Positions 4,959 through 47,932 are shown, counted from the stretch's first letter. The stretch: 64,000 nucleotides of DNA from Actinomycetota bacterium (GCA_018268595.1 JAFDWH010000026.1:62001-126000), one strand, 5' to 3'. Numbers and translations are program-made. Notes: a model not told the origin generated them from the sequence alone.

Positions 4959-4994
4959 ATGACTCCTGGGGTGACGACGACCGAGGGAGCCACG

Positions 4995-6464
4995 ATGACT
5001 GCCGCAACGACCGATCGAACGCGCTGGCTGGCGCTCTACGTGCTGTGCGCCGGCGTGCTGATGATCGTGCTCGACGCGACCGTCGTGAACGTCGCGCTGC
5101 CGTCGATCCAGGACGACCTCGGCTTCTCGCAGACGAGCCTCGCGTGGGTCGTCAACGCCTACCTGATCGCGTTCGGTGGGCTGCTGCTGCTCGGCGGCCG
5201 CATCGGGGACCTCGTCGGCCACCGGCGCATCTTCCTGATCGGCCTGACCGTCTTCACCGCCGCCTCGCTGCTGTGCGCGCTGTCGCAGACGCAGGGGATG
5301 CTGATCGCCGCGCGCTTCGTGCAGGGGATCGGCGGCGCGCTCGCCTCCGCGGTCGTGCTGGGGATGATCATGATGATGTTCCCGGAGCCGCGCGAGCAGG
5401 CGAAGGCGATCGGCGTCTACGGCTTCGTCGCGTCCGCCGGCGGCTCGATCGGCCTGCTGCTCGGCGGCGTGCTGACCGAGTCGATCAGCTGGCACTGGAT
5501 CTTCTTCATCAACGTGCCGATCGGCGTCGCGGCCGGCCTGCTGGCGCGGCGGCTGGTGGCGGCGCGGCCCGGGCTCGGACTCGGCGCGGGCGCCGACCTG
5601 CCGGGGGCCGGGCTGATGACAAGCGGTCTGATGATCGGCGTCTATGCGATCCTGCAGGTGAGCGAGAAGGGCTGGACCTCCGGCGAGGTGCTCGGCCTCG
5701 GCGCGCTGTCGCTCGTGCTGGTGACGGCGTTCGTGCTGCGCCAGGCGCGCGTCGCGAACCCGCTGATGCCGCTGCGGCTGTTCCGCTCGCGCAACGTGGC
5801 CGGCGCCAACCTCGTGCTGATCCTGCTCGTCGTCGGCATGTTCGGGATGTTCTTCCTGGGCGCGCTCTACCTGCAGCGGATCCTCGGCTACGACCCGCTC
5901 GAGGTCGGCCTCGCGTTCCTGCCGGGCACGATCGTGATGGGCGCGATGTCGCTCTACCTGTCGGGCCCGGTCACGATGCGCTTCGGCGCGAAGCGGGTGC
6001 TCGTGGTGTGCCTCGCCGCGATGGGCGGCGCGATGCTGCTGTTCGCGCGCACGCCGGTCGACGGCAACTACGTCGTCGACCTGCTGCCGATCATGCTGCT
6101 GTTCGGCTTCGGCGCCGGCCTGTCGTTCCCGTCGCTGATGCAGCTCGCGATGTCGGGCGCGGCGCCGAGCGACATGGGGCTCGCGTCGGGGCTGGTGAAC
6201 ACGTCGCCGCAGGTCGGCGGCGCCGTCGGCCTCGCCGTCCTCGCGACGATCGCGTCCGACCGCACCGACGCGCTGCTGTCGAACGGCCATTCCGCGATGT
6301 CTGCGCTCAACGGCGGCTTCCACACGGCCTACCTCGTCGGCGCGGCGCTCGTCGTCGTCGCGATCGCGACCGCGATCGCGCTGCTGGAGCCCGTCGCGCA
6401 CCCGGCGATGGCCGGCGCGCATGCGCCCGCGCAGGCCGGCGAGCCGGCGTACTCGGAGGCGTAG
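4995..6464 (+). CDS. DHA2-family MFS drug/metabolite efflux pump, 14 TM segments
   Basis: Proton-driven exporter of the EmrB/QacA type in the cytoplasmic membrane, 489 aa. The first helix ends in the family motif LDATVVNVALPSIQ, followed by the loop motif GGRIGDLVGHRR and the antiporter motif C region (ASAGGSIGLLLGGVL). I start at ATG 4995, preceded by a GAGGGAG ribosome site at 4983-4989; the promoter overlaps the earlier ATG at 4959. The divergent HxlR gene suggests ligand-induced expression. The protein ends GEPAYSEA, identical to the end of the second DHA2 pump at 16245-17822. The substrate is unknown. Confidence 0.9.
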   Translation: MTAATTDRTRWLALYVLCAGVLMIVLDATVVNVALPSIQDDLGFSQTSLAWVVNAYLIAFGGLLLLGGRIGDLVGHRRIFLIGLTVFTAASLLCALSQTQGMLIAARFVQGIGGALASAVVLGMIMMMFPEPREQAKAIGVYGFVASAGGSIGLLLGGVLTESISWHWIFFINVPIGVAAGLLARRLVAARPGLGLGAGADLPGAGLMTSGLMIGVYAILQVSEKGWTSGEVLGLGALSLVLVTAFVLRQARVANPLMPLRLFRSRNVAGANLVLILLVVGMFGMFFLGALYLQRILGYDPLEVGLAFLPGTIVMGAMSLYLSGPVTMRFGAKRVLVVCLAAMGGAMLLFARTPVDGNYVVDLLPIMLLFGFGAGLSFPSLMQLAMSGAAPSDMGLASGLVNTSPQVGGAVGLAVLATIASDRTDALLSNGHSAMSALNGGFHTAYLVGAALVVVAIATAIALLEPVAHPAMAGAHAPAQAGEPAYSEA

Positions 6465-6543: not shown

Positions 6544-6936
6544 GGCGGTAAGCTACGTGGCGTTCGGGGGATCGGCTTTCCGCTGCGGGGCAGACGCCTC
6601 GGGTGCTTCGCGGCCGACTGCGCGAGAGGGGGCTCAGCGCTGGGCTGGACAGGGATGCAGAGTCACGATGGAAGGCAGCTTTCACTACAGGGCGTTCGAC
6701 AAGGCCGCCAGTGCCCGCATCGGCGCGATGACGGACATGAGGGTCGAACATCCGTGCACCGGTGGTGAAATGTGGGCCTACAACGGTACGGAAGTCCTAC
6801 ATGCGACAACGCTACCAACAGCTTGCCGTGGCGGATACTTTACCCGAGCTTCATAGGGACGCTACCGAACATAAGTGAAGTCACCCTGCGGCCGCAGCTT
6901 GACCGTCCCGTGCGACGACTCCTAGGATCCGCTGCG
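6544..6936. other. Gene-free stretch upstream of the biosynthetic cluster
   Basis: I see no convincing gene here. The one forward frame of moderate length (6535-6768) is arginine/glycine-rich without a ribosome site. Base composition drops in 6740-6880 compared with the neighbours, which fits a promoter or a junction. No riboswitch that I recognise. Confidence 0.4.
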
Positions 6937-6962: not shown

Positions 6963-7000
6963 GTGAGGCTCGATCGCTCAAAGGGGGAGCTGTGGAATTC

Positions 7001-8122
7001 ATGTCAGAGGAGCGCCGCGCGCTGCACGCGCTCCTTCCCGGCTTGGACGAGCAGCTTGCCGACTTTCCGCTGGCCACGCTCGAGGCGTGCGACAGCCCCG
7101 CGATCGAGCTGTTTCGCGCCGCGGGTGGCCCTGGGTTGCTCGTTCCCACTGAGCATCGCGGGCACGGGATCGACGCTCGCACCGCGTTGCTGGTGCAACG
7201 CGCGCTGGGGGCGCGCTCGCCGTCGCTCGCGGTCGCCACGACCATGCACCACTTCTCCACGGCCACACTCGTCGAGGTCTGGCGTCGCGAACAGGGGCTC
7301 GAGTGGATGCTGCTGCAGGGCATCGCCGAACGGGGCCTGCTGCTTGCTTCCGGGTTTGCCGAGGGGACACACGGGCAGGCCGTTCTGCGGCCGACGATGC
7401 GTGGCCGGCGTGTAGCTGGCATGGTGCGACTCAACGGCAGCAAGCGTCCGTGCAGTCTGGCCCGCTCCATGGACATCCTCACGACATCGGTGGCGATCCT
7501 CGGAGAGGACGGGCGAGATGAGCTTGCGATCGCGCTTGTGTCCGCGGATCTGCCAGGGATCGAGGTCACGCCGTTCTGGTCGACGCCGCTGCTTGCCGGT
7601 GCGCAGAGCGACGCGGTGACGCTGCGGGACGTAGCGGTCGAGGAGAGACTCGTGGTGCCCGTCGGGGTGCTTGGCGCGTCGGAGCTCGATGCGGTGCAGG
7701 CGGCCGGCTTCCTGTGGTTCGAGCTGTTGATCGCGGCCGCCTACCTCGGTGTGGCGAGCGCGCTCGTGGAGCGCCTCCTGGAGGCGCGGCGCGGTGACGC
7801 GGCGGTGCGTGTGACCGCCGTGGCCGAGCTTGAGAGCTCGATGGCGGCCCTGTGCGGAATCGCGCGGGCGGTCGACGACGGAGCTGATCGGGCCGGCTTG
7901 CTGGGGCCGGCGTTGCTGTGCCGCTACGCGACGCAGGACGCGATCGTGCGTGCGACCACCCTGGCCGTTGAGCATCTCGGTGGTATGGCGTTCATCAGCT
8001 CCTCGGACGTCGGCTATCTGAGCGCCGCGGCGCGTGCGCTGGCATTCCATCCACCTGCCCGGAGTGTGGCGGCCAGGGCTGTCGACGCAGCGCTCGGAGG
8101 CGCTCCACTGCAGCTTCCATGA
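7001..8122 (+). CDS. Acyl-CoA dehydrogenase-like flavoprotein
   Basis: 373 aa with the acyl-CoA dehydrogenase plan: an alpha-helical N-terminal domain (residues 1-110), a central beta domain (about 115-210) and a C-terminal helical domain ending ARSVAARAVDAALGG. The C-terminal segment HLGGMAF sits where typical enzymes have HGG.G. These FAD enzymes put a double bond into acyl thioesters. As first gene of a cluster with its own acyl carrier protein, it probably acts on a carrier-bound fatty acyl chain (inference). The ribosome site GGGGGAG (6983-6989) is 11 nt from ATG 7001 and only 2 nt from the alternative GTG 6992, so I prefer 7001. The chain length handled cannot be read from sequence. Confidence 0.75.
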   Translation: MSEERRALHALLPGLDEQLADFPLATLEACDSPAIELFRAAGGPGLLVPTEHRGHGIDARTALLVQRALGARSPSLAVATTMHHFSTATLVEVWRREQGLEWMLLQGIAERGLLLASGFAEGTHGQAVLRPTMRGRRVAGMVRLNGSKRPCSLARSMDILTTSVAILGEDGRDELAIALVSADLPGIEVTPFWSTPLLAGAQSDAVTLRDVAVEERLVVPVGVLGASELDAVQAAGFLWFELLIAAAYLGVASALVERLLEARRGDAAVRVTAVAELESSMAALCGIARAVDDGADRAGLLGPALLCRYATQDAIVRATTLAVEHLGGMAFISSSDVGYLSAAARALAFHPPARSVAARAVDAALGGAPLQLP

Positions 8123-8266
8123 GCGCGCTGGACGGTTGCATCGGGCTGAGCCCACCACTAATCTAGAAGCAGGTGTAACGCCGATGGGGCCTTGGATCGA
8201 GTCCCTCGACGCGTTCGCTTCGGGGATGGCGCCGTGCTGCGGCGCCCATGACAGGTGGGGGGACCG

Positions 8267-8755
8267 ATGGACGCTGTCAACACGTTCGAGACGCCGGCGA
8301 CGTACCGTGCGCTCCGGGCCGAGTACGGCTTGCTGGCACTTGTAGCCGGCTACATGCTGTGGCGAAAGCGAGGCAGCGTGCGCTGGCCTGCCGCCGCGGC
8401 GCTGTTCTTCTACAACGATCTGGTCGGGTATGTGCCCGGAGCGCTTGCATACCGCCGCAGTGCGGACGGACGTATCGGGCGCCGCTACTACGCCGCGTAC
8501 AACGCCGCGCACAGCGCGCTGACTGCGAGCGCGGTCGCGGCTGGTTGGTCGAAGGCACGTGGGCCCGAGTGGGCGCTGCTGGCAATACCGCTGCACATCG
8601 GCATCGATCGTGGGCTGTTCGGGAACTTCTTGAGGCCCTTCAGCGTTGCGTTCGAGCCGAGACCGCATCCGGCATGGGTACAGGTGCGGGAGCAGCTGAG
8701 GACGCCGTGGCCAGGCGATGTGCGGCCTGCAGCAGATGCGGAGGCGGCTCGTTGA
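8267..8755 (+). CDS. Small membrane protein of unknown function in the biosynthetic cluster
   Basis: 162 aa with three or four hydrophobic stretches: YGLLALVAGYMLW, PAAAALFFYNDLVGYV, the AAHSALTASAVAAG helix, and LLAIPLHIGIDRGLFG. The conserved-looking pieces FYNDLVGY, NAAHS and HIGIDRGL recall small membrane proteins of the DUF4260 type, but I am not certain. The start is ATG 8267, with GGGGGGA six bases upstream. It follows a 144-bp gap after the dehydrogenase and overlaps the next gene by four bases. Valanimycin-type clusters also encode small membrane proteins of poorly known role; correspondence is possible but untested. Confidence 0.6.
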   Translation: MDAVNTFETPATYRALRAEYGLLALVAGYMLWRKRGSVRWPAAAALFFYNDLVGYVPGALAYRRSADGRIGRRYYAAYNAAHSALTASAVAAGWSKARGPEWALLAIPLHIGIDRGLFGNFLRPFSVAFEPRPHPAWVQVREQLRTPWPGDVRPAADAEAAR

Positions 8756-9777
8756 CGTCGCTCACTAAGCGCGTTGTCGCCGACCGCGACAGCTCCGCGT
8801 TCGACTGCTTGCGACGCGTCGGCCAGCACTCCAGCGGCTTCTTGACGCTGAACGAGGGCACGAGCCGCTATGTCGACCCGCGACTCGCGGGCTTCATCGC
8901 GTATCGCCCCGCTGGACGTCGCCACGCGATCCAGCTCTGCGGTCCGGTGGCGCCGGCACGCGACCGGCAAGCGCTGCTGCGGTCGTTTCTGCGCTGGGCC
9001 GCCAGCGAGGAGCGCCGCGTCACGGCAGTCCAGCTGACGCGCGGCGACGCGATCCTCTATGCGGAGCATGGCTTCACCGTCAACCAACTGGGCGCGAGCT
9101 ACAGCATCGACCTGAGGTGCTTCACGCTGAGCGGGACACGTTTTATGAGACTCCGCAACAAGGTCAAGCGCGCGCGACGCAGCGGGGTGACAGTGCGGGA
9201 GTGGGGCTGGGACGAGCAACGAGGCGCCAGGGGTAGCCACCAGCTCGCCGAGATCGACCGCGCATGGCTGCGCGGCAAAGGAGCGTTGGCGAAGGAGCTG
9301 GTGTTCATGGTGGGGGAACGGAACGGGCCCAATGCTCGCGAGCGCCGGCTCTTCGTCGGTGCCGACGGTGCCGGGCCGCTTGCATACGCGACCTACTCGC
9401 CATGCTTCGGCGACCGGCCGGGTTGGCTCTACGACCTCACTCGTCGTCGCCCGGATGCCCCGGCGGGAGCGATCGAGTTGCTGTTCCTCACAGCGCTCGA
9501 GCGCTTCGTCGACGAGGGCTGCGGCTGGCTTCACCTGGGCTTCACGCCGATGGCACAGCTCGACGCACGACACGAGCTGCCGTCGAGCTCGCGAACGGTG
9601 ACGGCGGTGCTCAGGCTGGTCGCGCGCCACGGAGAGCTGATCTATCCCGCCCGCTCGCAAGAGCACTTCAAGCTCAAGTGGGCGCCGCACGCGATCGAGC
9701 CCGAATACATCGCATTCGCTCCCCGCGTCAGTGTCGGCGCGCTGTGGCATCTGCTGCGGGTGACGCGGGCGATCTGA
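8752..9777 (+). CDS. DUF2156 aminoacyl-tRNA-dependent transferase-like protein (MprF C-terminal type)
   Basis: 341-aa soluble protein matching the catalytic domain of lysyl-phosphatidylglycerol synthases, a GNAT-like fold that takes amino acids from aminoacyl-tRNA. Visible family pieces are RLRNKVKRARRSGVTV (near 130-145), the block YDLTRRRPDAPAGAIELL (near 225-242), GWLHLGFTPMA, and HFKLKWAP near the end. The MprF membrane flippase half is absent, so a small soluble acceptor is as likely as a lipid. The start is TTG 8752, preceded by GGAGG and overlapping the stop of the membrane gene. Surrounded by amine-forming genes, it may act like VlmA of valanimycin biosynthesis, which moves serine from seryl-tRNA to a hydroxylamine. 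The family call is firm; the VlmA role is inference. Confidence 0.75.
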   Translation: MTSLTKRVVADRDSSAFDCLRRVGQHSSGFLTLNEGTSRYVDPRLAGFIAYRPAGRRHAIQLCGPVAPARDRQALLRSFLRWAASEERRVTAVQLTRGDAILYAEHGFTVNQLGASYSIDLRCFTLSGTRFMRLRNKVKRARRSGVTVREWGWDEQRGARGSHQLAEIDRAWLRGKGALAKELVFMVGERNGPNARERRLFVGADGAGPLAYATYSPCFGDRPGWLYDLTRRRPDAPAGAIELLFLTALERFVDEGCGWLHLGFTPMAQLDARHELPSSSRTVTAVLRLVARHGELIYPARSQEHFKLKWAPHAIEPEYIAFAPRVSVGALWHLLRVTRAI

Positions 9778-9786
9778 GGGGGGCGA

Positions 9787-11412
9787 GTGAGGAACCTGAT
9801 CTGGGAGGCGTACGAGACGGCGCGCGACGACAGACCGCTCGTGCACATCTGGGAGGACGACGGCTACGTGCCGCGCACGTGGGACTACTGGCGCGCGCAG
9901 GCCGAGCGCGTCGCCGCTGGCCTGCGCAGGCGGGGCGTGACACCCGGGACGCGAGTAGCGGCGGTCCTGACGAACACGGCGGACGTCGGCTGCGCCGTGA
10001 TCGGCACATGGCTGGCGGGCGCCGTCCTGGTCTCGCTGCCGACTCCGCGGCGCGGGCAGGAACCATTCGACTATCTCGCACAGTTGCAGCGCATCTGGCG
10101 TGACGCGGACGCGCATGTGCTGTTGATCGAGCAGCGCTTCCTCACGCTGCTCGACGGGCGCGACGTCGGCATACCGGTCGCAGCCTTCGACGCACTCGCC
10201 GCCGACGGTCCGTTCGAGCCCACGCCGCCGGCTGACGACGAGGTCGCGTTCATCCAGTACTCGTCTGGCAGCACGAGAGAGCCGAGCGGCTGCATGCTGA
10301 CCATGGCTGCGATCTCCGAGCAGGAGCGCATGATCCAGGCGCGCCTGGGCGTCGACGAAGGCACGGTCGGCGTGTCGTGGCTGCCGTTCTCGCACGACAT
10401 GGGGCTGTTCGGATCGCTGCTGCTGACGTGGGTCAGCGGCATGCGCGGCTGGCTCGGTTCGCCGGAGCGTTTCCTGCGCCAGCCGGGCACGTGGTTCGAG
10501 GACTGCGCCGCGTTCGGCGCGCATCTCACGATGGGGCCGAGCTTCGGGCTCGCGCTTGCCGTGCGACGCGCGCGCACGCGTCCCCCCAAGGGGGGCATAC
10601 CGCTGCGCGCGATCATTCTCGGCGGGGAGCGGATCGAGTGGGAGACGTTGCTGGAGGCGGACGAGGTGCTCGGGCCGTCCGGTCTGCGGCTCGAGACGAT
10701 GCTGCCCGCCTATGGGCTCGCAGAGGCGGCGCTCGCGGTGACGATGAAGCGTGGCGACGGTAGGCCGCCGACGGTTCGCCACGTCGACGCTCCGGCGCTC
10801 TACGCCGGTGAGCTGACGCCCGCGGATGCCGGCGCGGGTCTCGCGGTCGTCTCGTGCGGCCCGCCGGTCGACGGGGCCGCAGTGCGGATCGACGGCGACG
10901 GGCCGGTCGGGCGCATCTGCCTCCGCACCCCCTCACTGACGGTCGGCTACCTCGGTGACGAGGGGCTCACGCAGCGCTCGTTCGTCGACGGCGAGCTGTT
11001 CACAAACGACCTTGGGTTCCTCGAGGAGGGCGAGCTGTACGTGATCGCCCGCGTGGACGACGTCCTCACGATCGGCGGTCGCAACATCCACGCGCGCGAC
11101 GCTGAGCTGCTGGTCGAGCGCTGCGAGGGCGTCCGCACCGGCTGCGCGGCGCTGCTGGAGATGCCGCACCCGAGCGGGGCGCGCCTGCTGCTCGCGGTCG
11201 AGGCGCGCGGCGAGCTGGCCGGCGGCGGCGTGCCGCTCGCGCGTGAGATGGCGGCGGTCGTGTACCGTGCCGTCGGGCTGCGCGTGGAAGAGTGCGTGTT
11301 CATGGCGCCGGGGACGATGCCGAAGACGCCGAGCGGGAAGATCCAGCGCTTCCGCTGCCGCTCGCTGCTGGTGGACGGTGCGGACGTGATCCTTGAGCGA
11401 GTGGCGCTCTAG
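9787..11412 (+). CDS. Fatty acyl-AMP ligase (FAAL-like)
   Basis: 541-aa member of the adenylate-forming superfamily. The ATP-binding motif is IQYSSGSTREPSG (about residues 155-167), followed by the FAAL-like run LPFSHDMGLFGSLL and the motif YGLAEAALAV; the hinge region DDVLTIGGRNIHARD precedes a C-terminal domain with the lysine-containing end MPKTPSGKIQRF. FAALs activate a fatty acid as acyl-AMP and load it on an acyl carrier protein; the cluster has one at 14207. The start is GTG 9787, with an AGGGGGG ribosome site, nine bases after the previous stop. Alternatives such as an acyl-CoA ligase are less likely given the neighbouring carrier protein. Confidence 0.85.
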   Translation: MRNLIWEAYETARDDRPLVHIWEDDGYVPRTWDYWRAQAERVAAGLRRRGVTPGTRVAAVLTNTADVGCAVIGTWLAGAVLVSLPTPRRGQEPFDYLAQLQRIWRDADAHVLLIEQRFLTLLDGRDVGIPVAAFDALAADGPFEPTPPADDEVAFIQYSSGSTREPSGCMLTMAAISEQERMIQARLGVDEGTVGVSWLPFSHDMGLFGSLLLTWVSGMRGWLGSPERFLRQPGTWFEDCAAFGAHLTMGPSFGLALAVRRARTRPPKGGIPLRAIILGGERIEWETLLEADEVLGPSGLRLETMLPAYGLAEAALAVTMKRGDGRPPTVRHVDAPALYAGELTPADAGAGLAVVSCGPPVDGAAVRIDGDGPVGRICLRTPSLTVGYLGDEGLTQRSFVDGELFTNDLGFLEEGELYVIARVDDVLTIGGRNIHARDAELLVERCEGVRTGCAALLEMPHPSGARLLLAVEARGELAGGGVPLAREMAAVVYRAVGLRVEECVFMAPGTMPKTPSGKIQRFRCRSLLVDGADVILERVAL

Positions 11413-11414
11413 CG

Positions 11415-12485
11415 GTGCCGACCGTCCTCGTCACTGGCGGCACCGGACTCGTCGGGAGCGCTGTCGTCGACGCGCTGCGCCCGCTGCCCGTCCTGTCGCT
11501 GACGCGCCACGGCGCGCTCGGCTGGTCCGGGGCGCCGGAGCGCGCTGCCCGCTCCGTCAGCGCGCTGCTGCCCGCTGACAGCGGGCACGTCGTCCGCGCC
11601 CGCGAGGACCTCGACGTCGAGCACGTGCGCGGCGACATGACGCAGCCGCTGCTCGGCTTGTCCGCAACCGACTACGCAAGGCTCGCGGAGCGGGTGGACG
11701 TGGTGATTCATGCGGCTGGCGTCACCGACTACACGACGCCTCGCGCCGCGACGGAAGCGCTGAACGTCAACGGGACGCGTGGCGTCGCGCGCTTCGCTGA
11801 GCACGCGGGCGCGCCGCTCTACCACGTCAGCACCGGCTACGTTCGTGCGCCGGGCACGGCGGTGCGCGGCCGCTTCGGTGCACAGGTCTACCTCGACTCG
11901 AAGCGCGCTGCGGAGCTGGTCGCGCAGGAATGCACGATGCTTGCGGCGATCGTGCGGCCGTCGCTCGTCCTGGGGCACTCCGCCGACGGCTCGACGCCGA
12001 GCTTCCAGGGCCTGCACTACCTGCTGGGCTTGATGCTGAGGAATGAGCTGCCGCTGCTGCCGTTCTCCCCGGAGACGCGCATCGACTTCCTGCCGCGCGA
12101 CCTTGTCGGGGCGGTGATCGCGCGGCTCGCGCTGGAGCGATTCGAGGGTGAGCACTGGCTGACGGCGGGCGCGGATGCGCCGACGTTCGGTCGCGCGGTG
12201 GAGCTGTCGCGGGCTTTCGCCGCCGGCTGCGGACGGCAGCTCGATCCGCCGCGTTTCATCTCGCACGAGATGATCGACCGGCTGCTGCGTCCGATCGGCG
12301 GTCCGGCGCTCGTGCGCCGCCTCGAGCTGCTGCTGGCCTTGAGCTCGCACCTCAGGGCCGACCCGCTTCCCTGCTCGCGCGAGCGCCAGGACGACCTGGA
12401 CCTCGAGGCCGTGCTGTGGAGAAGCACGGCGTACTGGGCCGAGCGCACGGGCTGGGCGCGGACACGGGATCCGGTGCCCGCATGA
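11415..12485 (+). CDS. NAD(P)-dependent thioester reductase / extended SDR
   Basis: 356 aa. The N terminus holds the nucleotide-binding motif TGGTGLVG (residues 7-14), and the active-site pair YLDSK lies near residues 158-162. The region HAAGVTDYTTPRAATEALNVNGTRG is typical of thioester-reductase (male-sterility type) domains rather than sugar epimerases. These enzymes release a carrier-bound acyl chain as an aldehyde. It is immediately followed by a class III aminotransferase, which would turn an aldehyde into an amine. The GTG 11415 start is two bases after the ligase stop, and the end overlaps the next gene by four bases. Whether reduction stops at aldehyde cannot be read from sequence. 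Confidence 0.75.
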   Translation: MPTVLVTGGTGLVGSAVVDALRPLPVLSLTRHGALGWSGAPERAARSVSALLPADSGHVVRAREDLDVEHVRGDMTQPLLGLSATDYARLAERVDVVIHAAGVTDYTTPRAATEALNVNGTRGVARFAEHAGAPLYHVSTGYVRAPGTAVRGRFGAQVYLDSKRAAELVAQECTMLAAIVRPSLVLGHSADGSTPSFQGLHYLLGLMLRNELPLLPFSPETRIDFLPRDLVGAVIARLALERFEGEHWLTAGADAPTFGRAVELSRAFAAGCGRQLDPPRFISHEMIDRLLRPIGGPALVRRLELLLALSSHLRADPLPCSRERQDDLDLEAVLWRSTAYWAERTGWARTRDPVPA

Positions 12486-13744
12486 GCACGGTCGCGGTCA
12501 CGCCGGACGTCGATGCGACCTACCGGCGCCATCTCGGCGCCGGTCGCGCGCGCCTGGCAGCGGCGCTCGGCGGCCAGGTCGAGATCGCTGCGCACGGGGC
12601 GGTCGTCATCGACGCGCGGCAGGACGTCTACCTCGACTGCGGTGGCTACGGCGCCTTCTTGCTCGGCCACAGTCATCCGCGCGTGGTGGCGGCGGTCCAG
12701 GAGCAGGCGGCCCGGCGCGCGCTCGCGACACGGCTGTTTCTCGACCCGGTCCACGCCGGCGCCGCGCGGGCGCTTGTCGGCGTCGCCCCGCCCGGCCTGG
12801 ACCGCGTGTACTTCGCGACGTCCGGCGCCGACGCCATGGAGGCGGCTTTGAAGCTCGCGCGACTGCACGGCAAGCACCGGCTGATCGGCGTGCACGGCGG
12901 CTTCCACGGCAAGACGCTCGGAGCCCTTAGCGCGTCCGGCAACCCGACCTTCCGCGATCCGTTCGTGCCGCTGCTGCCGGGCGTCGTCCACGTTCCGTTC
13001 GGCGACGCCGGCGCGCTGGAGCGCGCCCTCGGGCAGGCCGGCGAGGCGGCATGCGTGGTGATCGAGCCGATCCAGGCAGAGGGCGGCGTGCGGCTGCCGG
13101 CGACCGGCTATCTGGCCGCCGCCGCCGATGCCTGCCGTGCGCATGGAGCGCTGCTCGTGCTGGACGAGATCGCGACCGGCGTGGGGCGCGTCGGCGCGTG
13201 GTGGGCGTGCGAGCAGGAGGCTGTGGTGCCGGATCTCCTGCTCGCCGGCAAGGCGCTCGGCGGCGGGGTCGTGCCGGTCGGCGCGGTGCTCGCGACCGCC
13301 GACGCGTTCGCGCCGCTGGACCGCGACCCGTTCATCCACAGCGCGACGTTCGCTGCGGCACCGCTCGTGATGGCTGGCGTGCGCGCGGCGCTCGAGGCTC
13401 TGGTGGAGGAGGAGGTGCCGTCGCGCGCGGCGCAGCTCGGAGTCCGGCTCCTCGCCGGGCTGCGGGCGGAGCTCGCCCATCTGCTCGAGGCGGGGTTGGT
13501 GCGAGCGGTGCGCGGCCGCGGTCTGCTCCTCGGCGTCGAGTTCGCGGCGCCGGCGATGGCGGGCGAGTTCGAGTACGAGCTGGTGGCGCGGCGCGTCATC
13601 CCGAACCACTGCCTCAATCACCACAGCGTCGTTCGCTTCACACCGCCGGCGTGTCTCGGAGACGACGAGCTGCGCTGGCTGCTCGACGCCGTTGCCGACG
13701 CCGGTGCCGCAGTCCTTGCCCGAAACGCGCGCCGGAGCCGGTGA
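12482..13744 (+). CDS. Class III aminotransferase (PLP)
   Basis: 420-aa aminotransferase of the ornithine/omega-amino-acid type. The fold is complete: GGYGAFLLGHSHPRVVAA near 55-70, FATSGADAMEAALKLAR, HGGFHGKTLGAL, the cofactor aspartate in LLVLDEIATGVGR, and the PLP lysine in LLAGKALGGG near residue 257. Family members aminate aldehydes or ketones using an amino acid donor. Directly after a thioester reductase, its expected substrate is a fatty aldehyde, giving a long-chain primary amine (inference). ATG 12482 overlaps the reductase stop (ATGA), implying translational coupling. An upstream in-frame ATG at 12416 lies deep inside the reductase and is unlikely. Confidence 0.85.
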   Translation: MSTVAVTPDVDATYRRHLGAGRARLAAALGGQVEIAAHGAVVIDARQDVYLDCGGYGAFLLGHSHPRVVAAVQEQAARRALATRLFLDPVHAGAARALVGVAPPGLDRVYFATSGADAMEAALKLARLHGKHRLIGVHGGFHGKTLGALSASGNPTFRDPFVPLLPGVVHVPFGDAGALERALGQAGEAACVVIEPIQAEGGVRLPATGYLAAAADACRAHGALLVLDEIATGVGRVGAWWACEQEAVVPDLLLAGKALGGGVVPVGAVLATADAFAPLDRDPFIHSATFAAAPLVMAGVRAALEALVEEEVPSRAAQLGVRLLAGLRAELAHLLEAGLVRAVRGRGLLLGVEFAAPAMAGEFEYELVARRVIPNHCLNHHSVVRFTPPACLGDDELRWLLDAVADAGAAVLARNARRSR

Positions 13745-13745
13745 G

Positions 13746-14210
13746 ATGTCGGCGGTGCGGCTGACGGCCGTCGTCGACGACGTCGACCCGCAGACGGCCC
13801 TGCTGCGTGTGACCGACTACCGCCGGTGGCCTGAGGCAAGCGACGCGGTGCGCTCGGTCAGCGTGGAGCAGACCGGCGTGTCCACCGCCGTGTCGACCTG
13901 GGAGGTGAGCTTCCGCGGCGGGCTGATGCGCTGGACCGAGTGCGACGTCCTGTGCGCCGACGCGCTCGAGCAACGCTTTTCGTTGATCGAGGGCGATCCG
14001 CTCGAATTCGCCGGCGCGTGGACGGCGTCCGAGCGCTCCGGCGGCTGCACGCTGCGGCTGACGGGAGAGTTCGATCTTGGCATGCCGAGCCTGCGCCACG
14101 TGCTCGATCCGATTGCGATCGAAGCGCTGGAGGACGCGATCACGGACGTGCTGGAGACGATGTTCGCCGGAAGGATCCGCGTCGGCCGGGCAGAGCCGGT
14201 GGCGCGATGA
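13746..14210 (+). CDS. SRPBCC/START-fold protein (cyclase/aromatase-like)
   Basis: 154 aa with the pattern of the SRPBCC superfamily: an N-terminal strand, VTDYRRWPEASDAVRSV, then repeated strands (TWEVSFRGGLMRWTE, LEFAGAWTASE) and a long C-terminal helix. Such proteins enclose a hydrophobic pocket and act as polyketide cyclases or lipid carriers. No ketosynthase is present, so a polyketide role is unlikely; it may hold the greasy intermediate or catalyse a dehydration or rearrangement (inference). ATG 13746 is one base after the aminotransferase stop, and the end overlaps the carrier-protein start by four bases. Confidence 0.65.
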   Translation: MSAVRLTAVVDDVDPQTALLRVTDYRRWPEASDAVRSVSVEQTGVSTAVSTWEVSFRGGLMRWTECDVLCADALEQRFSLIEGDPLEFAGAWTASERSGGCTLRLTGEFDLGMPSLRHVLDPIAIEALEDAITDVLETMFAGRIRVGRAEPVAR

Positions 14211-14479
14211 CGCAGCTCAGCGCGGCGCTTGTGGTCGACGCGGTGAACGAGGTGCTGGGCGTCAAGCGCCAGCGGTTCGAGCCGGTCGAAGCGCGCACGC
14301 CGCTCGCCGACCTGCAGCTCGACAGCCTCGACGTGGCCGAGCTGTTCATGGCGATCGAGGATCACTCCGGCTGCGAGTTGGACCCGGAGTCGGCGCGGTC
14401 GTTCGAGACGGTCGGCGACCTCGCAGAGCTGCGTCCGGCCGCGCCAGCCAACGACAACGACAGGGGGACGACCGTATGA
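14207..14479 (+). CDS. Acyl carrier protein
   Basis: 90 aa with the phosphopantetheine site LQLDSLDVAELFM; the serine of DSLD (near residue 38) is the attachment point. Helix 1 (SAALVVDAVNEVLGV) and the acidic helix around AIEDHSGCELDPES fit the family. It is the probable partner of the fatty acyl-AMP ligase and the substrate platform for the dehydrogenase and reductase. It overlaps both neighbours by four bases. The C-terminal tail (AAPANDNDRGTTV) looks disordered. A phosphopantetheinyl transferase must be supplied from elsewhere; none is in the window. Confidence 0.85.
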   Translation: MTQLSAALVVDAVNEVLGVKRQRFEPVEARTPLADLQLDSLDVAELFMAIEDHSGCELDPESARSFETVGDLAELRPAAPANDNDRGTTV

Positions 14480-15474
14480 ACGCCAAGCAGCCGATCGCCG
14501 CCGAGGCGGACTGGGAGCAGGCACCCAGCCTGCTGGAGGCGTCGGACGAGATCGAGCTCGCCCTCGACGACTGCGAACTGGAGTACTGGCTCAAGAACGT
14601 CGCGCAGGGCTCGATCGTCGGAACGGTCCACGGCCGCCGCGCCGACGCCGTGATACCGCCGATGCTGCGCGAGCCCGGCCCGCTGCGAGACAGCCGAATC
14701 GAAGAGGCCGCGTTCCGCGCGCTCTCGGAGGACGCGGCGACGAGAATCTGCGCGCTGATCGCCGCCGCCGCGCCGAACGTCGCCGGGATGGAGTTCTTTA
14801 CCACGCAGGCACTCGACGAGGCACGCCACGCGAACAGCATGCGCCACCACCTGCTCGACCTCGGCGTGCCTGCTGGCGAGCTGTTCGAGACGATCGAGCG
14901 CGTCGCGGGTCCCGATCGCGACCGCATCATCGAACCGTTGTGGGACTGGGCGCTGCCTGAGGTCGAAGACCACGCGGGCGACCTGCTGAGCCTGCGCGAA
15001 GCAGGGCACGTGGAACGCGTGTACATCAACGGAGTGGTCGTCATCACGATCCTGCTGGAGGGTGTGCTGGCGCCGACGACCGAGCTGGCCGAGCGCAAGT
15101 GGAAGCCGATCAGCGAGGCGAGCGCCGACGTCGAGCGGGGCGCGTGCGTCGACGAGATCCGCCATCTCGCCGTCGGCAGCTGGATCGTGCGCGAGCACGT
15201 GCGGACGCATGACGCCGACGAGAAGGAACGGATTCTCGCGCTGCTGGAGGAGGGACGCGCGAAGTGGGAGTCGGTTCCGGTTGTCGACATGCTGATGACG
15301 CGCGAGCGGCGCTTCCAGGAGGGCATCGAAGAGCATCGCTCCGCGATCGGCGACGGCGAGATCTGGCCCGGCCGGCGACTCGTCGACACCACCGTCGAGG
15401 AGCGCGTAATGAAGGCTGCGACGTGGTCGGTCGAGGTCCAGGAGCAGCGGATGCGCTACATGGGGCTCGGCTGA
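14476..15474 (+). CDS. Ferritin-like diiron protein with two DExRH motifs, putative N-oxygenase
   Basis: 332-aa helical protein. Two motifs, DEARH (near residue 115) and DEIRH (near 228), supply Glu-x-x-His ligands; acidic residues on preceding helices (GMEFF, LLEGVL) complete the set expected for a carboxylate-bridged diiron centre. The pattern resembles AurF/CmlI-type arylamine N-oxygenases (EX28-37DEXXH twice) and the ferritin-like proteins of N-N bond clusters. Substrates of related enzymes are amines or hydroxylamines. In this cluster it probably oxidises the amine nitrogen from the aminotransferase product (inference). ATG 14476 overlaps the carrier-protein stop. A fatty-acid desaturase or hydroxylase role cannot be excluded. 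Confidence 0.7.
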   Translation: MNAKQPIAAEADWEQAPSLLEASDEIELALDDCELEYWLKNVAQGSIVGTVHGRRADAVIPPMLREPGPLRDSRIEEAAFRALSEDAATRICALIAAAAPNVAGMEFFTTQALDEARHANSMRHHLLDLGVPAGELFETIERVAGPDRDRIIEPLWDWALPEVEDHAGDLLSLREAGHVERVYINGVVVITILLEGVLAPTTELAERKWKPISEASADVERGACVDEIRHLAVGSWIVREHVRTHDADEKERILALLEEGRAKWESVPVVDMLMTRERRFQEGIEEHRSAIGDGEIWPGRRLVDTTVEERVMKAATWSVEVQEQRMRYMGLG

Positions 15475-15486
15475 CTTGCGCGCGGC

Positions 15487-16167
15487 TCAGCGGAGCGCGC
15501 GGCGCACGCGCGAGCCGATTCGCGCCACGAGCGCGTTCTGGAATTCCAGGTCTTTCGAGGCTGGTTCCCAAACGATCGACACGCTCGAGATTGCACGGCC
15601 TATCCGGTTCAGGAGGGTGTCGACCGCGACGTCGTGACGGGGGATCGGGATCGTGAGTCGGTAGCTGGTGCTCTGCTGGCCGACGGGTTCCACAAGCAGC
15701 GTTTCCCTCGTCAGCGGCGCCAGCGGCTGATGCACTCGACTGACCGCGACGGCGTGCGTGTAGCTCACGATGCAGCGTCGGTTGGCTGGCGAGTCGAGAC
15801 GTGCGAACGCCGCGGCTGCCGTTCGCACGTCTCGGAACAACAGGACCGATTGCTGCGCTCTCGCCGCGTCGGTCACATACCTCGGCGTGGTGGCGACGCC
15901 GGTCGCGCTGTCGCGGAACAGCACGCGGGGGCTGCATGGCGCGTGGTTACGCAAGTCGCGCGCCGCGACGACGTTCCCCGGAATGTCGTCGCGGCGTACC
16001 AGCGCCGACTCCGCGCGTGCCGGATCGTCGAGCCTGCGAGGCGCCGCGACGACCGCTGCGCTCTGCCTGCGCGTGCCTGTCCGGTCGGGCTTCGTGCTCT
16101 CTCCGCATCCGGCGGCGAGGAGCGCTGCGCATGCACCGCATGCCAGTCTCCGTGTCCAGCGCTGCAC
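15487..16167 (-). CDS. Secreted lipoprotein, sensor-like domain
   Basis: 226 aa. The signal sequence MQRWTRRLACGACAALLAAGCG ends in a lipobox (LAAGC), so the mature protein is lipid-anchored outside the membrane. The body (QQSVLLFRDVRTAAAAFARLDSP, then SYRLTIPIPRHDVAVDTLLNRIG) resembles the extracellular PknH-type sensor domain of actinobacteria, which usually has paired cysteines; two or three occur here. The start is GTG 16167 with an AGGAGGGGG ribosome site. It converges on the biosynthetic cluster (12-bp gap) and diverges from the second DHA2 pump. Function unknown. Confidence 0.65.
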   Translation of the reverse strand: MQRWTRRLACGACAALLAAGCGESTKPDRTGTRRQSAAVVAAPRRLDDPARAESALVRRDDIPGNVVAARDLRNHAPCSPRVLFRDSATGVATTPRYVTDAARAQQSVLLFRDVRTAAAAFARLDSPANRRCIVSYTHAVAVSRVHQPLAPLTRETLLVEPVGQQSTSYRLTIPIPRHDVAVDTLLNRIGRAISSVSIVWEPASKDLEFQNALVARIGSRVRRALR

Positions 16168-16244: not shown

Positions 16245-17822
16245 GTGCGACGGTTGAGTCAGCAGACGACCACGCTCGTCGTGGTCTCAGCGGGCTTGTT
16301 CATGCTGCTGCTCGACCTGACGGTCGTGTACGTCGCGTTGCCGAGCGTCAAGCGCTCGCTGCACGCGAGCCTCGCCGAGCTCCAGCTGGTGGTCGACGTC
16401 TATGCGATGGCGCTCGCCGCGACGCTGCTGGCATCCGGGGCGCTCGCTGACATCGTCGGTCGCCGCAAGGTCTTCTGCCTCGGACTGGCGCTCTTCTCGC
16501 TTGCATCGCTCGCCTGCGGGTTGGCTCAGAACCCCCCGGAGCTGATCGCCGGTCGTGCCGTCCAGGGCGTCGGCGGCGCGATGATCTTCGCAACGTCGTT
16601 CGCCATCGTCGGTGTGACGTTCGAGGGCCACGCACGTGCGAAGGCATTCGGCGTGATCGGTGCGGTCGCGGCGGTCGCCGGTGCGCTCGGACCGCTCGTC
16701 GGTGGGATGTTGACGGAAACGCTCGGGTGGCCGACGATCTTCGTCGCAAACCTCCCACTGGGTGTGGGCGCCCTCGCGCTCGCCCTTCGCGGCGTCCCCG
16801 AGACGCGGCGGCCGGACCCCCCGCCGGTCGACTGGGGCGGGACGGTTCTGCTGTGTGCGCTCCTTGCATTGCTGGTCCTCGCGCTCCTGCGTGGGAACGA
16901 CCTCGGCTGGAGCAGCGCGCCGATCCTCTCCTTGTTCGCAGGAGGTGTCGCGTGCTTGGTCGCATTCGTGCTGGTGGAGCGGCGGCGATCCGAGCCGCTG
17001 CTCGACCTGCGGCTGCTGCGGAGACCGACGTTCGTCGGGGTCTCGCTCGTGGCGTTCACGCAGGCCGCGTCGCTGTTCGCGCTGCTGCTGTACGTCTCGA
17101 TCTATCTCCAAGGCGTCCTCGGCTACTCGCCGCTGGAGAGCGGGCTCTGCTTGCTCCCGATCCCGCTTTCCGCGATGCCCCCGGGCCTCGCGGCAGCTTG
17201 GCTGGCCGCGCGAATCCCCGCACGTGCGCTGCTGACGGCTGGGCTGCTGCTGATCGCCGCCGGCGTTGCACTGTTGGCGCAGGTCGAAGCGACAGGCACC
17301 TGGATTCAGATGCTCCCCGCCTGCGTGCTTGCTGGCACCGGCCTCGGCCTCCTGAACCCGCCGCTCGCGGCAGCTGCTGTCGACGTGGTTCCGCGGGGCC
17401 GTGCCGGCGTCGGCTCGGGCATCAACGCCACCTTCCGCCAGGTGGGGATCGCGCTGGCGATCGCGGCGTACGGAGCGATCTTCGAGCATCGCGTCGTCTC
17501 CGACGTGACTGAACGTCTGCGCGGGACGTCGCTCCAGCTGTACGCCGGTCGCATCGCCGACGCGGTCGTCGCCGGCGGGAACGGCGAGACGCTGGCCGAT
17601 GCACCCGCGGGGCTGCGGCCACACATCCGCGATGTTGCGCTCCACGCGTTCCTCGGGGGTCTGCACGCGATCGTTCTCATCGCGGCCGTCGTGGCCGCCG
17701 TCAGCGCGGTGGCGACGGCTGCGCTCGTGCGCAAACGCGACCTCGGACCTGCCGGACCCCACCATGCACACGCGCGCGGCGAGCATGCGCCGGCCGGCGA
17801 GCCGGCCTACTCGGAGGCGTAG
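16245..17822 (+). CDS. Second DHA2-family MFS efflux pump, 14 TM segments
   Basis: 525 aa. Family motifs are LDLTVVYVALPSVKRSL in the first helix, SGALADIVGRRKVF in the loop, and AAVAGALGPLVGGML (motif C). The start is GTG 16245 after GGGGGAG; longer in-frame extensions run through the divergent lipoprotein gene and are not credible. It lies within 1 kb of the biosynthetic cluster on the same strand and is the natural candidate exporter or self-resistance gene for its product, in the way valanimycin clusters carry an MFS pump (inference). It shares the C-terminal GEPAYSEA with the pump at 4995-6464, so the two are probably paralogues. Confidence 0.85.
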   Translation: MRRLSQQTTTLVVVSAGLFMLLLDLTVVYVALPSVKRSLHASLAELQLVVDVYAMALAATLLASGALADIVGRRKVFCLGLALFSLASLACGLAQNPPELIAGRAVQGVGGAMIFATSFAIVGVTFEGHARAKAFGVIGAVAAVAGALGPLVGGMLTETLGWPTIFVANLPLGVGALALALRGVPETRRPDPPPVDWGGTVLLCALLALLVLALLRGNDLGWSSAPILSLFAGGVACLVAFVLVERRRSEPLLDLRLLRRPTFVGVSLVAFTQAASLFALLLYVSIYLQGVLGYSPLESGLCLLPIPLSAMPPGLAAAWLAARIPARALLTAGLLLIAAGVALLAQVEATGTWIQMLPACVLAGTGLGLLNPPLAAAAVDVVPRGRAGVGSGINATFRQVGIALAIAAYGAIFEHRVVSDVTERLRGTSLQLYAGRIADAVVAGGNGETLADAPAGLRPHIRDVALHAFLGGLHAIVLIAAVVAAVSAVATAALVRKRDLGPAGPHHAHARGEHAPAGEPAYSEA

Positions 17823-38243: not shown

Positions 38244-39230
38244 GTGACCCCCTCGGACTACGACCGCGATCGGATCGAGGAGGAGGAGCCGCGGGCGGAG
38301 GTCGAGCCCGACGTCGAGCGCGACGCGTACGACGACGAGCCCTACGAGGACGACTTCGAGCCGCTCGACGATCCGCACGTGTCGGTCGTCTCGGAGCCGG
38401 CACCGCGCGGCGCCGCCGACGGCGACGAGGACGAGTTCCAGTACCACAGCGAGGCGCACCACGCGGTCGAAGGCGCCGAGGTCGCGATCCAGTTCATCGA
38501 CGTGCACAAGGCGTTCGGCCGCAACCGCGTGCTGCGTGGCCTGAACCTCGGAATCCCCGAGGGCCAGATCTCGATGATCCTTGGGCCGTCCGGCACCGGC
38601 AAGTCCGTCTGCATCAAGCACATGGTCGGCCTGTTGTACCCCGACAGCGGGGACATCCTCATCGAGGGCGACTCGGTCCCGAGCATGCCCGACGACGAGC
38701 TGTTCGAGATGCGCAAGAAGTTCGGCGTGCTGTTCCAGGACGGCGCGCTGTTCGGCTCGATGAACCTGTACGACAACGTCGCCTTCCCCTTGCGCCAGCA
38801 CACCGACAAGGGCGAGGACGAGATCGCCGAGATCGTCAATCGGCGCCTCCAGGAGGTCGGCCTCGCCGACTCGCCCGACAAGATGCCGAACGAGCTGTCC
38901 GGCGGGATGCGCAAGCGTGCCGGCTTCGCGCGTGCGCTGGTGCTCGACCCGCGCATCGTCCTGTTCGACGAGCCCGACTCCGGCCTCGACCCGGTGCGCA
39001 CGGCGCTGCTGTGCGAGCTGATCAAGGAGGTCCACCAGGAGAACGGCGGGACCTACGTCGTGATCACGCACGACATCATGAGCGCGCGTCGCGTGGCCGA
39101 GTTCATCGCCGTGCTGTGGCGCGGGCGGATCGTCGAGTCCGGGCCCGCGCAGGAGCTGTTCAACTCCGGCAACCCGTTCGTGCGGCAGTTCCTCACGGGG
39201 GAGTCCAGCGGACCGCTCGGGATGGAGTGA
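38244..39230 (+). CDS. MlaF/Mkl-type ABC ATPase with acidic N-terminal extension
   Basis: 328 aa. The ATPase core runs from about residue 75: Walker A ILGPSGTGKSV, Q-loop VLFQDGALF, signature LSGGMRKRAGFARAL, Walker B RIVLFDEPDSGLDPV, and the switch histidine in VITHD. The first 70 residues are strikingly acidic (IEEEEPRAEVEPDVERDAYDD and more) and absent from MlaF, so they are probably disordered and perhaps regulatory. It powers the permease encoded just upstream. In mycobacteria the ATPase (Mkl) is encoded away from mce loci; here it is inside the operon. The start is GTG 38244. Confidence 0.9.
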   Translation: MTPSDYDRDRIEEEEPRAEVEPDVERDAYDDEPYEDDFEPLDDPHVSVVSEPAPRGAADGDEDEFQYHSEAHHAVEGAEVAIQFIDVHKAFGRNRVLRGLNLGIPEGQISMILGPSGTGKSVCIKHMVGLLYPDSGDILIEGDSVPSMPDDELFEMRKKFGVLFQDGALFGSMNLYDNVAFPLRQHTDKGEDEIAEIVNRRLQEVGLADSPDKMPNELSGGMRKRAGFARALVLDPRIVLFDEPDSGLDPVRTALLCELIKEVHQENGGTYVVITHDIMSARRVAEFIAVLWRGRIVESGPAQELFNSGNPFVRQFLTGESSGPLGME

Positions 39231-39237
39231 CGCCTCG

Positions 39238-46379: not shown

Positions 46380-46383
46380 GGAC

Positions 46384-47931: not shown

Positions 47932-47932
47932 C

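What the first reader, a model, noticed from the sequence alone, without database searches (positions are those of the whole stretch)
7001..15474. Nine-gene cluster that looks like an undescribed alkylamine-to-N-N-bond (azoxy-type) pathway
Seen: acyl-CoA dehydrogenase, small membrane protein, stand-alone DUF2156 transferase, fatty acyl-AMP ligase, thioester reductase, class III aminotransferase, SRPBCC protein, acyl carrier protein and a two-DExRH diiron protein. All are co-directional, mostly with 4-bp overlaps, and an MFS pump is nearby. Known: valanimycin uses an amine N-hydroxylase and VlmA, which takes serine from seryl-tRNA; elaiomycin comes from an octylamine unit and serine. Inferred: fatty acid to acyl-carrier, desaturation, reduction to aldehyde, transamination, N-oxidation, then tRNA-dependent aminoacyl transfer. 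Not seen: a flavin N-hydroxylase, flavin reductase or dedicated seryl-tRNA synthetase.
Basis: partly seen in the sequence, partly recalled or inferred. Interest (0 to 1): 0.88.

Follow-up and report, generated by a model that had tools for sequence, protein, structure and literature searches.

The report
Deep-branching azoxy-lipid gene cluster
A soil actinobacterium of the family Solirubrobacteraceae carries a nine-gene operon that very probably turns a fatty acid into a fatty amine and then welds that amine's nitrogen to the nitrogen of an amino acid, making an azoxy natural product by the chemistry known from Streptomyces antibiotics such as valanimycin, but with a different front end and in a lineage where the papers searched describe no such product.

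Summary
The nine genes are real, co-directional and tightly packed. The azoxy reading is right in outline, but several roles change. The 'acyl-CoA dehydrogenase' is a VlmH-type flavin N-hydroxylase, so the N-hydroxylase reported missing is present. The 'small membrane protein' is VlmO, the N-N-forming hydrazine synthase: the four essential VlmO residues D51/H82/H110/D114 sit at identical numbers and are conserved across 55 sequences. DUF2156 is VlmA. The diiron protein is VlmB (PDB 6d9f 'Putative VlmB homolog', E=3e-122). All four are 38-49% identical to proteins of a valanimycin-type Streptomyces cluster. FAAL, ACP, thioester reductase and aminotransferase form a tambjamine-like fatty-acid-to-amine module; nearly all other fatty-type azoxy loci use an aldehyde dehydrogenase. 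SRPBCC co-occurs with the aminotransferase in 49/49 loci. The same cluster, plus VlmJ- and VlmK-like genes, occurs in a second Solirubrobacteraceae genus. In the VlmH and VlmA trees the window groups with that genome and one Streptomyces locus that also has a thioester reductase. Flavin reductase, seryl-tRNA synthetase, VlmJ and VlmK are absent from the cluster. The amino-acid donor and the product are not known. Verdict: new variant of a known kind.

The parts
6992..8122 (+). VlmH-type class D flavin N-hydroxylase (acyl-CoA-dehydrogenase fold, 376 aa; alternative ATG start at 7001)
   Evidence: 45% identity over 364 aa to the VlmH-position protein of valanimycin-type cluster L075; own-genome ACAD paralogues only 23-26%; best PDB sequence match DszC; AF2 pLDDT 90, Foldseek hits DszC/TdsC and N-oxygenases KijD3 and DnmZ among ACADs; FHPP invariant in homologues
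8267..8755 (+). VlmO-type membrane hydrazine synthase (N-N bond former; 162 aa, four predicted long helices)
   Evidence: weak DUF4260 match as reported for Ady6/VlmO (PMC9379638); D51, H82, H110, D114 identical in number to the essential VlmO residues (PMC11705231) and conserved in at least 98% of 55 sequences; 49% to L075 VlmO; AF2 model weak, pLDDT 68
8752..9777 (+). VlmA-type aminoacyl-tRNA:hydroxylamine transferase (DUF2156/LPG_synthase_C, 341 aa)
   Evidence: LPG_synthase_C E=9e-55; 38% over 328 aa to L075 VlmA against 25% for the own-genome paralogue; K307/K309 conserved
9787..11412 (+). Fatty acyl-AMP ligase (541 aa)
   Evidence: AMP-binding E=9e-40, no AMP-binding_C; best NCBIfam matches include FAAL and MbtM-type models; 58% to L010
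11415..12485 (+). Stand-alone thioester reductase (356 aa)
   Evidence: NAD_binding_4 E=3e-30; TIGR01746 thioester reductase E=8e-24; YLDSK (YxxxK); 61% to L010, 36% to L016
12482..13744 (+). Class III PLP aminotransferase (fatty aldehyde to fatty amine; 420 aa)
   Evidence: Aminotran_3 E=4e-74; NCBIfam matches include PigE aminotransferase; 46-55% to aminotransferases of about 50 azoxy loci
13746..14210 (+). SRPBCC (START-like) protein, probable carrier of the lipophilic amine or hydroxylamine intermediate (role inferred)
   Evidence: Polyketide_cyc2 E=8e-11; co-occurs with the aminotransferase in 49 of 49 loci and absent from the 7 without it
14207..14479 (+). Acyl carrier protein (90 aa, DSL phosphopantetheine motif)
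   Evidence: PP-binding E=5e-10; 59% to L011
14476..15474 (+). VlmB-type diiron oxidase (hydrazine to azo/azoxy; 332 aa)
   Evidence: A1 profile vs PDB 6d9f 'Putative VlmB homolog' E=3e-122; 42% over 326 aa to L075 VlmB; E77, E85, E115, H118, E195, E227, H230 conserved in at least 98% of 59 sequences
6899..6928 (+). Promoter-like site upstream of the operon (weak evidence)
   Evidence: single sigma-70-like match, 0.3 expected by chance
4971..6464 (+). MFS exporter, possibly part of the cluster
   Evidence: MFS_1 E=3e-54; 35-38% to MFS proteins in azoxy loci L054, L016, L024; membership not shown
16254..17822 (+). Second MFS exporter, possibly part of the cluster
   Evidence: MFS_1 E=7e-55; 32-35% to MFS proteins in L054, L024, L010, L016; membership not shown

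Best explanation
The operon encodes an aliphatic azoxy pathway of the VlmH/VlmA/VlmO/VlmB kind, fed by a fatty-acid-to-amine module. Proposed order: (1) the FAAL adenylates a free fatty acid and loads it on the small ACP; (2) the thioester reductase releases it as the fatty aldehyde; (3) the class III aminotransferase makes the primary fatty amine; (4) the VlmH-like flavoprotein, supplied with reduced flavin by a reductase encoded elsewhere, N-hydroxylates it; (5) the VlmA-like enzyme moves an aminoacyl group (Ser or Ala most likely) from aminoacyl-tRNA onto the hydroxylamine oxygen; (6) membrane-bound VlmO rearranges this ester to an N-N bonded hydrazine; (7) VlmB oxidises the hydrazine through azo to azoxy. 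The SRPBCC protein probably carries the greasy amine or hydroxylamine between enzymes. The product would be an N-alkyl azoxy amino acid, exported by a neighbouring MFS pump. Shown here: homology, conserved catalytic residues, synteny and co-occurrence. Inferred from published work on relatives: every reaction step. Not known: chain length, amino acid, final tailoring.
For: All four core proteins match a valanimycin-type cluster (L075: ilvC/N and acetolactate synthase, PLP decarboxylase, flavin reductase, serS, MmgE/PrpD) over most of their length: VlmH 45%, VlmO 49%, VlmA 38%, VlmB 42%. VlmO metal residues D51/H82/H110/D114 are at identical positions and conserved in 55 sequences (PMC11705231). 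VlmB: PDB VlmB homologue E=3e-122; plasmid homologues are annotated 'VlmB-like protein'. VlmH: closest solved sequences are DszC, and the model's top Foldseek hits include N-oxygenases KijD3 and DnmZ; own ACAD paralogues are far away. Of 56 VlmB loci counted, 55 carry the VlmH-like gene. The fatty-type Streptomyces loci have the gene run VlmH-AT-SRPBCC-VlmO-VlmB. The sister cluster L010/L011 has the same nine genes plus VlmJ-like DAG kinase and VlmK-like MmgE/PrpD, the valanimycin dehydration pair. FAAL/ACP, TR and AT together parallel TamA (adenylation+ACP) and TamH (TA+TR), shown in vitro to turn fatty acids into amines (PMC9594044).
Against: No flavin reductase in the cluster (four elsewhere in the genome); some related loci (L016, L062, L072) show none either within the stretches held. 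No dedicated serS (one good genomic match at 41%) and no VlmJ/VlmK match in the genome, so the amino acid and the final steps are open. The window lacks the KASIII, desaturase and methyltransferase genes seen in other azoxy clusters. The reference VlmH/A/O/B sequences themselves were not in hand; comparison was to a cluster identified by its gene content. Nothing is known about expression or product.
Confidence: 0.87

Rival explanations
1. Fatty-amine or lipid-aminoacylation pathway with no N-N bond: the DUF2156 protein aminoacylates a lipid or fatty amine (MprF-like), the ACAD desaturates an acyl-ACP, and the diiron protein is a fatty-acid oxidase.
For: DUF2156 is the MprF catalytic domain and P0003 matches solved MprF/LpiA structures; ACAD, diiron and FAAL families are common in lipid metabolism.
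Against: P0003 is 38% identical to the VlmA of a valanimycin-type cluster and co-occurs with VlmO, VlmB and VlmH in nearly all loci. The diiron protein falls in the VlmB family, not a fatty-acid family. The ACAD is VlmH-like and has FHPP invariant near the C terminus. The VlmO metal residues are kept.
Confidence: 0.06
2. The pathway stops at a hydrazine, hydrazone or azo compound, or the N-N intermediate is processed into something other than an azoxy group.
For: Tailoring genes (VlmJ, VlmK, methyltransferase, KASIII) are absent from the window, and the window's VlmB carries an insertion of about 16 residues between helices relative to L011.
Against: The candidate diiron ligand residues of VlmB are kept, and VlmB is reported to take the hydrazine to azoxy in the valanimycin system (PMC11705231).
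Confidence: 0.1
3. The cluster is decaying or non-functional in this genome: VlmJ/VlmK, flavin reductase and tailoring genes were lost after divergence from the L010/L011 type.
For: The sister cluster has VlmJ, VlmK, ACAD2, CMAS methyltransferase and desaturase genes that the window lacks; the cluster is in only 2 of 146 family genomes.
Against: All nine ORFs are intact and tightly spaced, and the catalytic residues checked are conserved; a decaying operon would be expected to show frameshifts.
Confidence: 0.08

Closest known systems
Valanimycin cluster (VlmH, VlmR, VlmA, VlmL, VlmO, VlmB, VlmJ, VlmK)
   Same: Same four-enzyme core: N-hydroxylase, tRNA-dependent transferase, membrane hydrazine synthase, diiron oxidase, at 38-49% identity to a valanimycin-type cluster.
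   Different: The amine comes from a fatty acid through FAAL/ACP/TR/AT, not from valine by a decarboxylase; no VlmR, VlmL, VlmJ or VlmK in the cluster.
Azodyrecin (ady/azd), elaiomycin (ela) and KA57-A (ka) clusters
   Same: Azoxy clusters with VlmA/O/B homologues; azodyrecin also has a transaminase and a VlmH/R-type pair, and likewise lacks a cluster-borne aminoacyl-tRNA synthetase (PMC9379638). The related fatty-type Streptomyces loci also carry the SRPBCC gene.
   Different: Azodyrecin and the Streptomyces loci here use a dehydrogenase (Ady2 or ALDH), and most of the loci also carry KASIII; the window uses FAAL + ACP + thioester reductase and has no methyltransferase or desaturase. The authentic elaiomycin and KA57-A clusters were not compared directly.
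Tambjamine YP1 TamA/TamH fatty-acid-to-amine cascade (PMC9594044)
   Same: Adenylation, ACP loading, thioester reduction and transamination of a free fatty acid to a fatty amine.
   Different: Four separate proteins here, two fusion proteins there; the TamH reductase domain is described as related to acyl-ACP reductases, the one here is a TIGR01746-like SDR; the amine goes to a pyrrole compound there and probably to an azoxy group here.
Streptomyces sp. DSM 15324 locus L016
   Same: Has a thioester reductase (36%) and no ALDH match; groups with the window in VlmH and VlmA trees.
   Different: No FAAL or ACP match near it; has an alpha/beta hydrolase; different gene order.

Membership tests
Bacterial aliphatic azoxy (VlmH/A/O/B) pathway | VlmO-type membrane protein with essential D51, H82, H110, D114 | tested here: met
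   Same residues at the same numbers; conserved in 55 sequences; numbers from PMC11705231
Bacterial aliphatic azoxy (VlmH/A/O/B) pathway | VlmB-type diiron oxidase | tested here: met
   PDB 6d9f VlmB homologue E=3e-122; 42% to L075 VlmB; candidate ligands conserved
Bacterial aliphatic azoxy (VlmH/A/O/B) pathway | VlmA-type DUF2156 transferase | tested here: met
   38% over 328 aa to L075 VlmA; tree with cluster VlmAs
Bacterial aliphatic azoxy (VlmH/A/O/B) pathway | VlmH-type flavin N-hydroxylase | tested here: met
   45% to L075 VlmH over 364 aa; class D monooxygenase relatives
Bacterial aliphatic azoxy (VlmH/A/O/B) pathway | Partner flavin reductase (VlmR) in the cluster (auxiliary, not treated as defining) | tested here: not met
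   None in the cluster; four Flavin_Reduct proteins elsewhere in the genome. Several related loci also show none in the stretches held
Bacterial aliphatic azoxy (VlmH/A/O/B) pathway | An azoxy product | not testable with these tools
   Needs expression and mass spectrometry
Valanimycin/elaiomycin subtype (serine donor, VlmJ/VlmK dehydration) | Dedicated serS, VlmJ kinase, VlmK MmgE/PrpD | tested here: not met
   Absent from the cluster; no genomic VlmJ or VlmK match; one good serS match at 41%. VlmJ- and VlmK-like genes are present in the sister cluster L010
Azodyrecin subtype | Ady1 methyltransferase, Ady2 dehydrogenase, Ady9 desaturase | tested here: not met
   No methyltransferase, aldehyde-type dehydrogenase or desaturase among the nine genes; no ALDH match in window 1-30000
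TamA/TamH-type fatty acid to amine module | Fatty acid adenylation, ACP, thioester reduction, transamination encoded together | tested here: met
   FAAL, TR, AT and ACP in one operon; works alike, but is not a member by fusion architecture
MprF/LPG synthase | N-terminal flippase domain and LPG synthase function | tested here: not met
   Stand-alone 341-aa protein with only the C-terminal synthase domain; the lipid substrate was not tested
Acyl-CoA dehydrogenase (desaturating) | ACAD domains above curated cut-offs and a canonical catalytic base | tested here: not met
   Both Pfam ACAD domains below curated cut-off; FHPP invariant in the C-terminal region where, by my reading of the motif, canonical ACADs have the catalytic Glu; no significant match to the true ACAD in L010

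The most novel reading that the evidence does not exclude
The window, its Solirubrobacteraceae sister and the Streptomyces L016 locus belong to a separate, early-diverging branch of azoxy pathways that makes its fatty aldehyde with a thioester reductase. In the window the VlmA enzyme of this branch uses an ordinary cellular aminoacyl-tRNA, possibly not Ser or Ala, and makes an untailored N-alkyl azoxy amino acid, a new azoxy-lipid chemotype from a class of soil bacteria without described N-N natural products.
Probability: 0.4. Interest if true: 0.65.

Novelty: new variant of a known kind. Interest (0 to 1): 0.52.

Why it matters
It puts the complete azoxy N-N-bond cascade in Solirubrobacteraceae (two genera), outside the Streptomyces-centred set in which it has been characterised, joined to a fatty-acid-to-amine module like that of tambjamine. 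That gives divergent VlmO, VlmA and VlmB sequences (38-49% to the valanimycin type) for testing which residues and which aminoacyl-tRNA matter, and points to an untapped source of azoxy lipids. The 49-of-49 co-occurrence of the SRPBCC protein with the aminotransferase gives a testable role to a protein to which the passages read assign none.

Tried and rejected
The VlmO model was too weak (pLDDT 68) for a fold search, and metal-site geometry was not tested. The VlmH tree mistakenly included non-ACAD neighbours of two own-genome loci as extra rows; only the starred window/L010/L016 group is used from it. The serS label on the VlmA tree did not settle the donor amino acid. A literature search for azoxy in Thermoleophilia gave nothing relevant.
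Full report
Observation. The window is 62001-126000 of contig C18 of a 3.57-Mb genome.

Core enzymes. Gene 2, the 'small membrane protein', has only a weak DUF4260 match, which is what was reported for Ady6, the azodyrecin VlmO homologue (PMC9379638). VlmO makes the N-N bond and needs D51, H82, H110 and D114 (PMC11705231). Gene 2 numbered from the ATG at 8267 has D51, H82, H110 and D114; all four are conserved in at least 98% of 55 sequences and invariant in the curated alignments. Gene 9 is a VlmB: profile E=3e-122 to PDB 6d9f 'Putative VlmB homolog', and plasmid homologues are annotated 'VlmB-like protein'. Gene 3 is VlmA-like: LPG_synthase_C, 38% to the VlmA of L075, against 25% for the only own-genome paralogue found.

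Gene 1 is the N-hydroxylase. VlmH (isobutylamine N-hydroxylase) is listed among the group D flavin monooxygenases, which share a domain with acyl-CoA dehydrogenases (PMC6165268), and is 378 aa long (PMC7347517); gene 1 is 376 aa. Both Pfam ACAD domains are below their cut-offs, the best solved sequence matches are DszC, own-genome ACAD paralogues are 23-26%, and the true ACAD of the sister cluster gives no significant match. It is 45% identical over 364 aa to the protein in the VlmH position of L075. Its model (pLDDT 90) hits DszC/TdsC and the N-oxygenases KijD3 and DnmZ among the top Foldseek matches, mixed with true acyl-CoA dehydrogenases as expected for a shared fold. In homologues 'FHPP' is invariant near the C terminus, where by my reading canonical ACADs carry the catalytic Glu.

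Reference cluster. L075 (plasmid of Streptomyces sp. NBC_00212) is valanimycin-like by content: ilvC, ilvN, acetolactate synthase, DUF2156, ACAD, hypothetical (VlmO), flavin reductase, VlmB-like, APC permease, PLP decarboxylase, serS, MmgE/PrpD. L072 resembles an elaiomycin-type cluster by content: VlmJ-like kinase, VlmK-like MmgE/PrpD, ALDH, ACAD, aminotransferase, SRPBCC, VlmO, VlmB, KASIII, ACP, serS. The authentic Vlm, Ady, Ela and Ka proteins were not available, so these assignments rest on gene content and published descriptions.

Distribution. A genome scan with the VlmB profile gave 53 loci, nearly all Streptomyces. Of 56 VlmB loci counted, 55 carry the VlmH-like gene and 53 carry VlmO. 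The aminotransferase and SRPBCC occur together in 49 loci and are both absent in 7, so SRPBCC belongs to the fatty-amine subtype; intermediate binding is my inference. Within the window's family the cluster is in 2 of 146 genomes; in a class sample only the window's own genome matched, 1 of 399.

What is different. Only the window and the sister cluster have FAAL + ACP + thioester reductase; L016 has a thioester reductase without FAAL or ALDH; the other loci with an aminotransferase have an ALDH. Window, L010 and L016 group together in the VlmH tree (100/99) and the VlmA tree (100/100), and the window pair sits apart from the rest in the VlmB and aminotransferase trees; long branches make the exact depth unsure. 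The FAAL/ACP/TR/AT set parallels TamA/TamH, which convert fatty acids to amines in vitro (PMC9594044).

Sister cluster. L010/L011 carries the nine genes at 58-69% identity over a contig break, plus a VlmJ-like DAG kinase, a VlmK-like MmgE/PrpD (read as two overlapping frames), a true ACAD, a CMAS methyltransferase and a desaturase. VlmJ phosphorylates the serine part and VlmK dehydrates it in valanimycin (PMC9379638), so these genes point to serine there. The window lacks them and the genome has no match to either query, so its product probably keeps the amino-acid part undehydrated.

Open points. Reduced flavin must come from elsewhere; four Flavin_Reduct proteins are encoded in the genome. 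Only one convincing serS is found. The donor amino acid, chain length, exporter and product are not known. The overall azoxy assignment is strong by homology, but every chemical step is inferred from characterised relatives. antiSMASH 8 has an azoxy rule (PMC12230676), so the class is recognised; the papers searched contained no azoxy cluster from Thermoleophilia, though subscription journals are mostly missing from that library.

Noticed in passing
L053 8351-18618 and L058 8786-14929: Streptomyces albireticuli and S. eurocidicus loci have VlmH, VlmB, KASIII, a ketosynthase and VlmA but no VlmO within the stretch held, even by profile search; either VlmO lies elsewhere or another enzyme makes the N-N bond.
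   Followed up: partly
L064 6949-18402: Yinghuangia seranimata has VlmH and VlmB between two AMP-binding enzymes, with MMPL, FAD-NAD(P)-binding and lyase genes, but neither VlmA nor VlmO nearby: a possible different use of VlmB.
   Followed up: partly
L010 9581-11067: The VlmK-like MmgE/PrpD gene of the sister cluster reads as two overlapping frames: a frameshift or an assembly error in this MAG.
   Followed up: no
window 14476-15474: The window's VlmB has an insertion of about 16 residues (around residues 167-183) absent from its closest homologue L011.
   Followed up: no
window 38244-50569: An mce-like operon: ABC ATPase, five MlaD/Mce proteins and an MMPL protein, all co-directional.
   Followed up: no
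G000:C4:138165-141022: One of the four flavin reductases in the genome lies about 1.2 kb from the only convincing serS match; a link to the azoxy pathway is possible but unsupported.
   Followed up: no
window 15487-16167: A 226-aa protein on the - strand with a lipoprotein-like start and no Pfam match sits between VlmB and the second MFS gene.
   Followed up: no
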